From contig NZ_SNZA01000003.1 of the NCBI RefSeq assembly GCF_004363305.1, positions 310,001-374,000 on the forward strand: DNA of 64,000 bases, in the 5' to 3' direction. The stretch comes from Marinomonas communis (GTDB lineage: Bacteria > Pseudomonadota > Gammaproteobacteria > Pseudomonadales > Marinomonadaceae). Below the pieces are notes generated by a model. The model saw only the letters and a list, made by a program, of their open reading frames with translations, ran no database searches and was not told the DNA's origin. This document shows, piece after piece, positions 20,759-26,071 of this stretch (position 1 is its first letter; each line of letters starts with the position of its first letter). The position numbers and the translations under genes are program-made.

Positions 20759-21151
20759 ATGAACTCTAATAATAAAAGCTATCATGACATTCCTGGGACA
20801 ACCGTATTTGATGGTGAAATGGCCCGCAAAGGCTTTCATCTTAATCAATTTTGCATGTCCTTGATGAAAGCGGTTAATCGTGAAGCGTTCAAACAAAATG
20901 AGCGTGCTTATCTTGACCAATACCCGATGAGCGAAGAGCAAAAGCAAGCGGTACTAGACCGGAACTTTACTCAGTTAATTGCTCTGGGTGGCAATATCTA
21001 TTATCTCGTCAAAATCAGCTCAGCCGATGGTTTAAGTGTCGCGGCAGCTGTCTCGACTATGACGAACCTCTCAACCGAAGAATACCTCGATATGATGCGC
21101 CAAGGAGGACGTCCTCCTGAAGGTAATCGTTATCCTAAGGAGCAACAGTAA
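20759..21151 (+). CDS. ligA: Extradiol (protocatechuate 4,5-dioxygenase-type) alpha subunit
   Basis: 130 residues from the ATG at 20759 (GGAAG just upstream); an in-frame ATG at 20744 has no ribosome-binding site. The sequence follows Sphingobium LigA closely in layout: DIPGTTVFDGEMARKGFHLN, FCMSLMKAVNREAFK, YLDQYPMSEEQKQAVLDRN, GGNIYYLVKI, and MTNLSTEEYLDMMRQGG near the end. LigA caps the active site of the catalytic LigB subunit. The stop overlaps the ligB start (TAATG), so the two are translationally coupled. Whether protocatechuate is the real substrate is open. Confidence 0.9.
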   Translation: MNSNNKSYHDIPGTTVFDGEMARKGFHLNQFCMSLMKAVNREAFKQNERAYLDQYPMSEEQKQAVLDRNFTQLIALGGNIYYLVKISSADGLSVAAAVSTMTNLSTEEYLDMMRQGGRPPEGNRYPKEQQ

Positions 21152-21996
21152 TGGCTAACATCCATGCGGGTCTTGGCACTTCACATATTCCACTGTTAGG
21201 TCGCATCATTGATATTGGTGATAGTGCAAAGCCTGACTGGACACCAGTTTTTTCAGGTTTTGAATTCACAAAGCAGTGGATCCAGAAGCAAGCCCCAGAT
21301 GTGATTATTTTGGTTTACAACGACCATGCAACTACTTTTGATATGAAGTTTATTCCAACCTTTGCTATTGGCTGTGCCGAGGAATTTAAACCAGCAGATG
21401 AGGGTTATGGTGCGCGACCTGTACCGATCGTAAAAGGTGCACCAGAGTTAGCTTGGCATCTTACTGAGCAGTTGATTCTAAATGGCTTTGACATGACAGT
21501 AGTAAACGAGATGGATGTGGATCATGGTCTTACGGTGCCTTTGTCCATGGTATTTGGTCAAGTTGAGAAGTGGCCATGCCGAGTGATTCCTCTTGCTGTA
21601 AATACGGTGGTTTATCCCGCGCCAACAGGCGAGCGCTGTTTGGCTTTGGGAAAAGCATTGCGTAAAGCAATTGAGCAATTTCCAGCAGAATTAAATGTTC
21701 AAGTTTGGGGAACGGGTGGAATGAGTCACCAGCTATTAGGTGAGCGTGCAGGGTTAATTAATCAGCCGTGGGATATTTCATTTATGGATCGTCTCAAAGA
21801 TAACGCTACTGAATTGGCAAAGATTTCTCAGGAGCAATACATTCGCGAGTCAGGAACAGAAGGCAGTGAAATGGTAATGTGGCTGATTATGCGGGGGGCC
21901 TTGAATCGAGTTAAAGAAGTTCATCGCCACTATCACGTTCCAGTATCGAACACAGCACTTGGTCACATTATTTTTGAAGAAGAGGAGTTGCCATGA
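21151..21996 (+). CDS. ligB: Extradiol (protocatechuate 4,5-dioxygenase-type) catalytic beta subunit
   Basis: 281 residues, class II (type III) extradiol dioxygenase. The Fe(II) ligands are visible as His12 (GTSHIPLLG), His59 (YNDHATTF) and Glu240 (EGSEMVMW), and the catalytic base as His193 (GTGGMSHQL). They match LigB of Sphingobium SYK-6 (His12, His61, Glu242, His195) with a constant shift of two. It cleaves a catechol ring beside the diol using O2 in the cytoplasm. The downstream hydrolase gene overlaps by 4 bp (ATGA). Likely substrates are protocatechuate, gallate or a related dihydroxy aromatic acid; no gene for the usual next step (LigC dehydrogenase) is present. Confidence 0.92.
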   Translation: MANIHAGLGTSHIPLLGRIIDIGDSAKPDWTPVFSGFEFTKQWIQKQAPDVIILVYNDHATTFDMKFIPTFAIGCAEEFKPADEGYGARPVPIVKGAPELAWHLTEQLILNGFDMTVVNEMDVDHGLTVPLSMVFGQVEKWPCRVIPLAVNTVVYPAPTGERCLALGKALRKAIEQFPAELNVQVWGTGGMSHQLLGERAGLINQPWDISFMDRLKDNATELAKISQEQYIRESGTEGSEMVMWLIMRGALNRVKEVHRHYHVPVSNTALGHIIFEEEELP

Positions 21997-24260: not shown

Positions 24261-24770
24261 ATGTTAACCACTATTAGAAAACTGGCGGATAGAGTGATTT
24301 CTTTGTCCGCTGCAGTTGGCGCTCTCGGTTTGATTTTTATTATGCTGGTGCTTCTAGCAGACGTGATTGGGCGAGCTTTCGGCTCGCCCATGTACGGCTC
24401 TCAAGACATCATTACTATGTCTATGACCATTGTGGTATTTGGAGCAATGGCTATTTGTGATCGCTCTGGTGGGCATATTGCTGTAGATCTATTTGAGCGA
24501 GTTTATCCTAGCCTTCTTAATCGTCTGATTGACATTGTTTCTGCAATACTTGGAGCTGTGATTTTTGTCGCTATTGCCTATGCGGTAAACGAGAGCGCCA
24601 AGCTTTCAGCTATGTTAAACCTATCGACCAACCTACTGCGTTTACCTAAAGTTTGGTTTCAAAATGGTTTGTCATTGTTTGCACTATTAACTGCTATTGG
24701 CATGCTGCTACGAGCATTAGAACTGATTTTTTCGGGACGAGATGTACGTAAAAAAGGAGATGTAGCATGA
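24261..24770 (+). CDS. dctQ: TRAP transporter small membrane subunit (DctQ family)
   Basis: 169 residues with four membrane segments, the normal layout (about 16-36, 48-68, 88-108, 130-150). Family marks are LADVIGRAFGSPMYGSQDI near 35-52 and a Trp/Phe-rich segment (LPKVWFQNGLSLF). It begins 3 bases after dctP and overlaps dctM by 4 bp (ATGA), so the three are coupled. DctQ is needed for Na+-driven uptake with DctM. Confidence 0.9.
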   Translation: MLTTIRKLADRVISLSAAVGALGLIFIMLVLLADVIGRAFGSPMYGSQDIITMSMTIVVFGAMAICDRSGGHIAVDLFERVYPSLLNRLIDIVSAILGAVIFVAIAYAVNESAKLSAMLNLSTNLLRLPKVWFQNGLSLFALLTAIGMLLRALELIFSGRDVRKKGDVA

Positions 24771-26071
24771 GTGCTTCAATGATTGGCATGCTCGGTATTT
24801 TGATCATGTTTATATTACTGGTACTTCGGGTACCAGTCGCGTTTGCTATGTTTGCGGTAGGCTTTGCTGGAATTACCATTTTAGACAGTAGCCGTTCAGC
24901 GTTTAGTTTACTTGCATCAGAAAGTTTTACCTTGGCGTCTTCACCAGAGCTAGTGGTCATTCCGTTGTTTATATTGATGGGGAATGTCGCATCGGCGACA
25001 GGTATGAGCCAACGACTTTACGATGCTGCTTATGCAATCATTGGGCAATTTCGAGGAGGGTTAGCCTCTGCAACAGTCATTGGTTGTGGCGGTTTTGCTG
25101 CCTTGTCTGGTTCTTCTGTTGCATCAGCGTTGACTATGGGGAAAGTAGCGCTCGGACAGATGGATCGGTTTAATTACAGTAAACGACTATCTACTGGTGT
25201 GGTTGCTGCAGGAGGAACTTTAGGGATCTTGATTCCACCTTCGACAGGCTTTGTTATTTATGCCATTTTGACTGAGCAAAGCATAGGGCGTTTATTTTTA
25301 GCAGGTGTTTTACCAGGTATCATGCTGCTGCTTTTGTTTATTGTGATGATTATGGTGATTTGCTACTTCAAGCCTGATTTTGGCCCAGCAGGGCCAAAAA
25401 CGAATCTACGAGAGAAGAGCAAAGCAATACTGGGTGCGGGACCTATTGTAATGGTTATCCTGTTAACAATTGGTGGGATTTATGGAGGATTATTCTCACC
25501 TGTTGAAGCAGCGGCAGTAGGCGCAGGCTTTGTCATACTAGTCGGTTTCGCGGGGCGAACGCTGTCACTCAGAATGCTATGGCAAGCTGCGCGTGAAGCT
25601 GTGGTAACAACGGCAACAGTGATGCTAATTCTAATAGCTGCTCATATGATAAATCCGTTTATGGCTCTTAGTCACATTCCTACCGCTGTGGGCGAGTTCC
25701 TATCCATGCTGGATCTTGGTGTGATAGGAACGCTAATCTTAATCCTAATGATTTATCTAGTGCTTGGTTGTTTCTTGGAAGGTTTTGCAATGTTAGTGCT
25801 GACTTTGCCTATCTTCTTTCCGATCATTATGCAGCTAGGTATCGACCCGATATGGTTTGGTGTTCTGACTGTTTTGACTCTTGAAATGGGGCTGATTTCT
25901 CCTCCAGTGGGAATAAACGTATTTATTGTTAAGTCGGTTGCCCCTAAGGTTGAATTAGGCGACATTTTCCGTGGAGTATTACCGTTTTGGTTAATGATGG
26001 TTCTTGCGGTGGCTTTATTGTTAGCTTTTCCCCAAATTGTCTTAATTTTACCAAATACAATGTTTGGTTAA
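24767..26071 (+). CDS. dctM: TRAP transporter large membrane subunit (DctM family)
   Basis: 434 residues, about 12 hydrophobic segments, normal length. The two scoop-like repeats are recognisable: VIGCGGFAALSGSSVASALTMGKVAL (about 102-127) with GILIPPSTGFVIYAIL, and the second repeat with LEMGLISPPVGINVFIVKSVAP (about 364-385). It forms the Na+-dependent channel of the TRAP importer. Last gene of the ligAB-hydrolase-NTF2-TRAP operon; a large AT-rich inverted repeat follows within 60 bp. Confidence 0.92.
   Translation: MSASMIGMLGILIMFILLVLRVPVAFAMFAVGFAGITILDSSRSAFSLLASESFTLASSPELVVIPLFILMGNVASATGMSQRLYDAAYAIIGQFRGGLASATVIGCGGFAALSGSSVASALTMGKVALGQMDRFNYSKRLSTGVVAAGGTLGILIPPSTGFVIYAILTEQSIGRLFLAGVLPGIMLLLLFIVMIMVICYFKPDFGPAGPKTNLREKSKAILGAGPIVMVILLTIGGIYGGLFSPVEAAAVGAGFVILVGFAGRTLSLRMLWQAAREAVVTTATVMLILIAAHMINPFMALSHIPTAVGEFLSMLDLGVIGTLILILMIYLVLGCFLEGFAMLVLTLPIFFPIIMQLGIDPIWFGVLTVLTLEMGLISPPVGINVFIVKSVAPKVELGDIFRGVLPFWLMMVLAVALLLAFPQIVLILPNTMFG

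What the first reader, a model, noticed from the sequence alone, without database searches (positions are those of the whole stretch)
20759..26071. Undescribed-looking aromatic module: LigAB ring cleavage, hydrolase and NTF2-like protein with a dedicated TRAP importer
Seen: seven genes in tight order with overlaps (TAATG, ATGA, GTG/TAG, ATGA). LigB keeps all four key residues (His12, His59, His193, Glu240). Known: protocatechuate 4,5-cleavage normally proceeds through LigC, LigI, LigU, LigJ and LigK, and none of these is here. Instead the next genes are an alpha/beta hydrolase and a SnoaL/NTF2-like protein, then DctPQM. Inference: a carboxylated catechol (perhaps a substituted or esterified protocatechuate/gallate) is imported by TRAP, opened by LigAB, and the product is cut or isomerised by the two extra enzymes. 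That would be a variant pathway in a marine bacterium.
Basis: partly seen in the sequence, partly recalled or inferred. Interest (0 to 1): 0.78.

Follow-up and report, generated by a model that had tools for sequence, protein, structure and literature searches.

The report
Syringate breakdown operon with own importer
This gene cluster most likely lets a bacterium take up and break open a methoxylated lignin acid (syringate, by way of 3-O-methylgallate), using the same kinds of enzymes that were described in 2025 in a Pseudomonas, here joined to a dedicated importer.

Summary
In detail: LigA, LigB, an alpha/beta hydrolase, a SnoaL_4 protein and DctPQM lie in the stated order. 'Undescribed' does not: Pseudomonas sp. 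NGC7 degrades syringate with the same enzyme kinds, MgaAB (3-O-methylgallate ring opening), MgaC (alpha/beta hydrolase) and MgaD (SnoaL), giving 4-oxalomesaconate. The LigC/I/U/J/K set absent here lies elsewhere in the same genome, as does VanAB O-demethylase. The module is in 17 of 48 genomes of the genus, each also having close VanA and LigJ relatives. Hydrolase and SnoaL are fused in 5 of the 17, LigB and hydrolase in 1. All 17 module LigAs have Val at SYK-6 Phe103, the residue controlling selectivity at substrate C5. Related operons in other families add a DesA/LigM-like gene, VanAB-like genes or LigK-LigU; DctPQM lies beside VanAB in one genome. Best reading: a syringate/3-O-methylgallate module feeding LigUJK. 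All steps are inferred from sequence; the importer's ligand is the least certain. New variant of a known kind.

The parts
20759..21151 (+). ligA-type alpha subunit, 130 aa; Val at the position of SYK-6 Phe103
   Evidence: PF07746 1.2e-32; NF009917 213.8 bits; Val in 17 of 17 module LigAs
21151..21996 (+). ligB-type catalytic beta subunit, 281 aa
   Evidence: PF02900 9.7e-76; 61% identical to SYK-6 LigB, 396 bits against 248 for DesB; His12, His59, His125, His193, Glu240
21993..22700 (+). alpha/beta hydrolase, 235 aa, MgaC-like; proposed CHMOD methyl ester hydrolase
   Evidence: Abhydrolase_6 2.2e-12; Ser63, Asp183, His211 identical in 16 of 16 aligned relatives; fused to SnoaL in 5 and to LigB in 1 of 17 module genomes
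22700..23149 (+). SnoaL_4/NTF2-like protein, 149 aa, MgaD-like; proposed CHMA tautomerase
   Evidence: PF13577 2.5e-17, the family named for NGC7 MgaD; conserved residues over 15 relatives
23277..24257 (+). dctP, TRAP solute-binding protein
   Evidence: PF03480 7.1e-38; close relatives in 8 of 390 genomes of the order
24261..24770 (+). dctQ, TRAP small permease
   Evidence: PF04290 1.1e-16
24767..26071 (+). dctM, TRAP large permease
   Evidence: PF06808 2.9e-97
19389..20694 (-). divergent LysR-type regulator, split over two frames in this genome (N part 20041-20694, C part 19389-20189)
   Evidence: HTH_1 with two stretches and LysR_substrate; uninterrupted frame (403-476 codons) in 16 of 16 module relatives

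Best explanation
It is a 3-O-methylgallate (syringate) catabolic module with its own importer. DctPQM brings in syringate or a close methoxylated benzoate (inferred, least certain). VanAB, encoded on contig C4, removes one methyl group to give 3-O-methylgallate, 3MGA (inferred). LigAB opens the 3MGA ring to CHMOD, a methyl ester (inferred from homology and Val103). The hydrolase cuts the ester to CHMA plus methanol, and the SnoaL protein tautomerises CHMA to 4-oxalomesaconate (inferred from NGC7 and from the fusions). LigU, LigJ and LigK, encoded on contig C1, carry 4-oxalomesaconate on to pyruvate and oxaloacetate (inferred). Shown here: the genes, their order, co-occurrence, fusions and conserved residues. 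Not shown: any activity, ligand or regulation.
For: Same enzyme kinds as the NGC7 syringate operon. Fusions hydrolase-SnoaL in 5 and LigB-hydrolase in 1 of 17 module genomes. Val for Phe103 in 17 of 17 module LigAs, also in two other families of the order and in two sphingomonad LigAs beside hydrolase, DesA/LigM-like and NTF2 genes; published mutants at this position gain on gallate and 3MGA and F103V is active. Close VanA relative in 17 of 17 module genomes against 15 of 31 others, LigJ in 17 of 17 against 21 of 31. Operons demethylase-LigA-LigB-hydrolase-SnoaL (L118, L119) and LigK-LigU-hydrolase-SnoaL-LigA-LigB (L124). VanAB, LigU/J/K and the rest of the Lig set are in the own genome.
Against: No VanAB in the operon, unlike NGC7; VanAB is on another contig. 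The window LigAB is of the SYK-6 LigAB type, not of the GalA-like MgaAB type. NGC7 MgaC and MgaD sequences could not be obtained, so homology to them is shown only at family level. Val103 is not exclusive: own LigA2 on C1 and a KA1 LigA of another subfamily align Val, and Novosphingobium RL4 LigA near such a cluster keeps Phe. VanA also occurs in 15 of 31 genomes without the module, and co-occurrence is not corrected for shared ancestry. The regulator is split in this genome. M. litorale has the hydrolase beside VanAB but no SnoaL match.
Confidence: 0.78

Rival explanations
1. The module handles gallate or another C5-substituted protocatechuate rather than 3MGA, and the hydrolase cuts whatever ester or ketone results.
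For: Val103 would suit any larger C5 group; published Phe103 mutants also gain on gallate.
Against: Gallate opening gives 4-oxalomesaconate directly and needs no hydrolase; a gallate-dioxygenase-type fusion is already encoded on C5. Demethylase or VanAB-like genes lie beside relatives of the module.
Confidence: 0.12
2. It is a spare protocatechuate 4,5-dioxygenase; the hydrolase and SnoaL proteins serve an unrelated role.
For: LigB is 61% identical to SYK-6 LigB, whose native substrate is protocatechuate.
Against: Fusions LigB-hydrolase and hydrolase-SnoaL; Val in place of Phe103; two LigAB pairs already lie in the canonical cluster on C1.
Confidence: 0.06
3. The ring-opening module is for 3MGA, but the TRAP importer carries something else (vanillate, or a non-aromatic acid).
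For: A 127-base gap separates SnoaL and dctP. Two module genomes have no TRAP genes in the stretch fetched. In G094 the TRAP genes lie beside VanAB with no ring-opening genes recognised in the stretch, which would suit vanillate.
Against: DctPQM is adjacent in 15 of 17 module genomes of the genus and in modules of G275 and G379 from another family; close DctP relatives are rare, 8 of 390 genomes.
Confidence: 0.3

Closest known systems
Pseudomonas sp. NGC7 syringate operon vanA1B1-mgaAB-mgaC-mgaD (PMC12314914; abstract, introduction, pathway section, homologue-search methods and discussion read)
   Same: LigAB-like ring opener, alpha/beta hydrolase and SnoaL (pfam13577) protein encoded together; product expected to be 4-oxalomesaconate.
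   Different: Window: LigAB of SYK-6 type rather than GalA-like; no vanAB in the operon; TRAP genes adjacent; LysR beside ligA instead of a GntR repressor; fused proteins in some relatives. The words TRAP, tripartite, Marinomonas and fusion do not occur in the NGC7 paper.
SYK-6 LigAB and Arthrobacter keyseri PcmA, protocatechuate 4,5-dioxygenases
   Same: 61% (LigB) and 54% (PcmA LigB part) identity, same active-site residues.
   Different: Val for Phe103 in the alpha subunit; no LigC/I/U/J/K beside it.
Novosphingobium aromaticivorans syringate route with LigAB and DesC/DesD (PMC8091115, passages)
   Same: LigAB opens 3MGA to CHMOD; an esterase step follows.
   Different: DesC/DesD sequences were not obtained; NGC7 MgaC has only 13% identity to DesC according to PMC12314914.
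TarPQM, TRAP importer of phenylpropenoid acids (PMC3610893, abstract and passages)
   Same: A TRAP system for lignin-derived aromatic acids.
   Different: Ligands there are coumarate, ferulate, caffeate and cinnamate; no direct sequence comparison was made.

Membership tests
LigAB type II extradiol dioxygenase | PF07746 alpha and PF02900 beta subunits encoded together | tested here: met
   both far over the cut-offs
LigAB type II extradiol dioxygenase | Active-site His12, His59 (61 in SYK-6 numbering), His125, His193, Glu240 | tested here: met
Protocatechuate-specific LigAB | Phe103 in the alpha subunit | tested here: not met
   Val in 17 of 17 module LigAs
NGC7 mga syringate operon | alpha/beta hydrolase plus SnoaL pfam13577 protein beside the ring opener | tested here: met
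NGC7 mga syringate operon | Ring opener of the GalA-like MgaAB type | tested here: not met
   Window LigB 396 bits to SYK-6 LigB against 248 to DesB; NGC7 MgaB is 41% to LigB
NGC7 mga syringate operon | VanA1B1 in the same operon with a GntR regulator | tested here: not met
   VanA, VanB and a GntR gene are on contig C4 instead
NGC7 mga syringate operon | Sequence orthology of hydrolase and SnoaL protein to MgaC and MgaD | not testable with these tools
   NGC7 sequences were not obtained
NGC7 mga syringate operon | 4-oxalomesaconate branch present in the genome | tested here: met
   LigU, LigJ, LigK on C1
Canonical protocatechuate 4,5-cleavage operon | LigC, I, U, J, K beside LigAB | tested here: not met
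   None beside the window LigAB; complete on C1 beside other LigAB pairs
TRAP importer | DctP, DctQ and DctM encoded together | tested here: met
TRAP importer for aromatic acids | DctP binds an aromatic acid | not testable with these tools
   Gene-neighbourhood evidence only

The most novel reading that the evidence does not exclude
A self-contained syringate uptake and ring-opening cassette in which LigAB has become a dedicated 3MGA dioxygenase through a natural Phe103-to-Val difference (found also, apparently independently, in sphingomonads), the esterase and tautomerase work as one channelled unit (fused in some species, and the esterase once fused to LigB), and DctPQM is the first TRAP importer specific for a syringyl lignin acid.
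Probability: 0.4. Interest if true: 0.62.

Novelty: new variant of a known kind. Interest (0 to 1): 0.45.

Why it matters
If right, it gives a genetic handle on syringyl-lignin turnover in a genus other than the few studied ones, and a candidate inner-membrane importer for syringate (in NGC7 the candidate PSN_2690 showed no growth effect when deleted). It also gives a natural counterpart of the LigA F103V mutant, and naturally fused hydrolase-tautomerase proteins with which the MgaC and MgaD steps, still called putative, can be tested.

Tried and rejected
Considered and rejected: (a) that the organism lacks the Lig enzymes: LigC/I/U/J/K are on C1. (b) C-C (meta-cleavage) hydrolysis of a side-chain ketone: not needed once the NGC7 route was found; not tested further. 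(c) Structure predictions of DctP and of the SnoaL protein from single sequences gave mean pLDDT 34.6 and 35.2, useless; no fold search was run. (d) Solved DctP relatives were listed but without ligands, so no ligand is claimed. (e) Marinobacterium litorale (L007) has a 40% hydrolase relative beside VanAB and a GntR gene, but its genome gave no SnoaL match at E<=0.001. (f) The pCAR3 hydrolase between ligB and ligC (L107) did not match the window hydrolase at E 1e-7. (g) Comparison with MgaC, MgaD, DesC, DesD and DesZ sequences: not obtained. (h) In one search the LigB of L102 was cut out of frame and its branch must be ignored; two LigA residues (L022, L100) were lost to over-long starts and were read again. 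(i) Hydrolase relatives also occur away from any ring-opening gene that I recognised (L006, L008, L009), so the hydrolase family alone is not diagnostic. (j) The genus name was not established by any tool; Marinomonas is my guess.
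Full report
The seven genes are there as described. The order and the overlaps TAATG, ATGA, TAGTG and ATGA can be read directly; Pfam and NCBIfam give LigA, LigB, an alpha/beta hydrolase, SnoaL_4 (Pfam), DctP, DctQ (Pfam) and DctM. LigB carries His12, His59, His193 and Glu240. A 127-base gap lies between the SnoaL gene and dctP, so a single transcript is not proven. A divergent LysR-type gene with two HTH stretches lies next to ligA. 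In this genome it is split over two frames; in 16 of 16 module relatives it is uninterrupted.

The Lig enzymes absent from the window are not absent from the genome. On contig C1 lie LigC, two LigAB pairs, LigI, LigU, LigK and LigJ, with a double-HTH LysR regulator, QuiC- and AroE-like genes and a TTT-type importer (the QuiC, AroE and TTT names are my reading of the sequences). Against annotated sphingomonad and Arthrobacter lig genes (L021, L023, L026) the five enzymes are 53-71% identical. A gallate-dioxygenase-type LigB-LigA fusion is on C5 and a fifth, YgiD-like LigB on C2 (both names are my reading). VanA-VanB with a GntR gene is on C4.

The enzyme set matches a pathway published in 2025. 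In Pseudomonas sp. NGC7, syringate is demethylated by VanA1B1 to 3-O-methylgallate (3MGA), opened by MgaAB to CHMOD, hydrolysed by MgaC (alpha/beta fold, MenH domain), isomerised by MgaD (SnoaL-like, pfam13577) and passed to GalD/B/C (PMC12314914; abstract, introduction, pathway section, homologue-search methods and discussion read). The mgaC deletion gave 95% mol/mol of 2-pyrone-4,6-dicarboxylate, the spontaneous product of CHMOD; the mgaD deletion reached about half the final density. The paper itself calls MgaA-D putative. PMC8091115 (passages) shows purified N. aromaticivorans LigAB turning 3MGA into CHMOD.

Conservation in the genus. A search of 48 genomes of the same genus with the SnoaL protein found 17 with a match, the own one included. 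I took stretches from the 16 others. All 16 hold LysR, LigA, LigB, hydrolase and SnoaL coding regions in this order; 14 of the 16 also have DctPQM adjacent (15 of 17 with the window), while G043 and G044 have none in the stretch fetched. Hydrolase and SnoaL form one continuous frame in 5 genomes (L050, L052, L054, L056, L057), LigB and hydrolase in 1 (L055). Such fusions suggest that the proteins act on consecutive substrates.

Co-occurrence. A close VanA relative is in 17 of 17 module genomes and 15 of 31 others (Fisher, one-sided, p=1.3e-4); LigJ in 17 of 17 and 21 of 31 (p=0.007); among the 38 LigJ genomes VanA is in 17 of 17 and 15 of 21 (p=0.02). Shared ancestry is not corrected for. One further genome, G003, has only a distant VanA match and was counted as lacking it.

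The specificity residue. In SYK-6 LigA, Phe103 controls selectivity at substrate C5; F103V, T, L and H are active, and mutants at this position raise activity on gallate and 3MGA, some beyond DesZ (PMC10094722, abstract and passages). All 17 module LigAs have Val there, as do those of L118 and L119 and the LigAs of N. pentaromativorans US6-1 (L095) and Novosphingobium PP1Y (L099) that lie beside a hydrolase, an aminomethyltransferase gene that I read as DesA/LigM-like, and an NTF2 gene. The second copies of those two strains, in canonical lig clusters (L100, L103), have Phe, as do SYK-6, PcmA and eight other canonical copies examined. In a FastTree of concatenated LigA and LigB (25 taxa; the L102 LigB was out of frame and is to be ignored) the sphingomonad Val pair nests inside a Phe clade, so the change there looks independent. 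Against a simple rule: the LigA of Novosphingobium RL4 near such a cluster (L022) keeps Phe, and own LigA2 on C1 and a KA1 LigA of another subfamily align Val.

Neighbourhoods outside the genus. Of 390 genomes of the order, 13 have a SnoaL relative at E<=1e-14, 4 of them from the own genus. The other 9 were all fetched. L118 and L119 carry DesA/LigM-like gene-LigA-LigB-hydrolase-SnoaL side by side (LigB 69 and 67%, hydrolase 55 and 54%, SnoaL 42% to the window). L121 has VanAB, GntR, GalA-like LigB, LigA, SnoaL and hydrolase, close to the NGC7 plan. L122 has distant VanA/VanB-like genes (33 and 36%), DctPQM and hydrolase-SnoaL-LigA-LigB. L123 has hydrolase-SnoaL-LigA-LigB-DctP (that DctP resembles the M. 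litorale one). L124 has DctPQM and LigK-LigU-hydrolase-SnoaL-LigA-LigB. L117 has a demethylase-like gene beside SnoaL only; L120 and L125 have none of the partners. Among plasmid records 14 hold a SnoaL relative; in 12 of the 14 a hydrolase relative lies within about 10 kb, judged from positions (one search listed 30 of 97 records). In Sphingobium fuliginis pSF3, hydrolase, SnoaL, LigB-like, LigA-like and LysR lie together.

The importer. DctP relatives at E<=1e-65 are in 8 of 390 genomes of the order: 4 of the own genus, all module carriers; G275 and G379 beside modules; G094 as VanA-VanB-DctP-DctQ-DctM with a divergent GntR gene; G320 beside a GntR gene near a contig end. G094 and G320 have only weak SnoaL matches (28-30%) elsewhere, not examined further. 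The shared factor is a methoxylated benzoate, so syringate fits this operon and vanillate is not excluded. TarPQM shows that TRAP systems can take up lignin-derived acids (PMC3610893, abstract and passages).

Active sites. The proposed triad Ser63, Asp183, His211 is identical in 16 of 16 aligned hydrolases; in 15 of 15 aligned SnoaL proteins Asp27, Arg46, Arg67, His74, Asn78, Ser93, Asp124, Trp133 and Arg138 are identical. Which SnoaL residues act is not known.

Mechanism, with status. Import of syringate: inferred. Demethylation by VanAB: inferred from the genome and from published VanAB activity on syringate. Ring opening of 3MGA by LigAB: inferred from homology and Val103. Ester hydrolysis and tautomerisation: inferred from the NGC7 work and the fusions. 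4-Oxalomesaconate to pyruvate and oxaloacetate: inferred from LigU/J/K. A Marinomonas isolate growing on syringate has been reported (PMC7540876, passages), but no tool named the genus of the window; Marinomonas, and with it 'marine', is my guess.

Literature. Searches for a TRAP importer or a SnoaL enzyme tied to syringate, and for MgaC/MgaD (openly licensed PMC papers only, listings capped at 20), showed no paper describing this operon or a syringate TRAP system; I judged this from titles and abstract starts, and most subscription papers are not held.

Noticed in passing
window 19389-20694, minus strand: The LysR-type regulator beside ligA is split over two frames in this genome, while 16 of 16 module relatives have an uninterrupted frame: an assembly error or a mutation of the regulator.
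   Followed up: partly
L050, L052, L054, L056, L057; L055: Natural fusions: hydrolase-SnoaL in five genomes of the genus and LigB-hydrolase in one.
   Followed up: yes
L018 8542-11145: The canonical lig cluster of the same genome holds two LigAB pairs side by side; their separate roles are unknown.
   Followed up: no
L019 8615-9865: A LigB-LigA fusion of gallate dioxygenase type beside a LysR gene, far from other aromatic genes.
   Followed up: no
L096 9989-13437: Small Sphingobium fuliginis plasmid pSF3, which also carries an organophosphate hydrolase gene, holds a compact hydrolase-SnoaL-LigB-like-LigA-like-LysR block.
   Followed up: partly
L107 5904-6611: pCAR3 has an alpha/beta hydrolase gene between ligB and ligC that did not match the window hydrolase at E 1e-7.
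   Followed up: no
L135 7196-12103: VanA-VanB-DctP-DctQ-DctM in one row with a divergent GntR gene: a TRAP importer directly linked to vanillate-type O-demethylation.
   Followed up: partly
L121 526-7344: An NGC7-like syringate gene set with VanAB, GntR, GalA-like LigB, LigA, SnoaL and hydrolase, beside TRAP-like genes, in another family of the order.
   Followed up: partly
window 26187-26780: HutD/Ves-family gene downstream of dctM; no link to the module seen.
   Followed up: no
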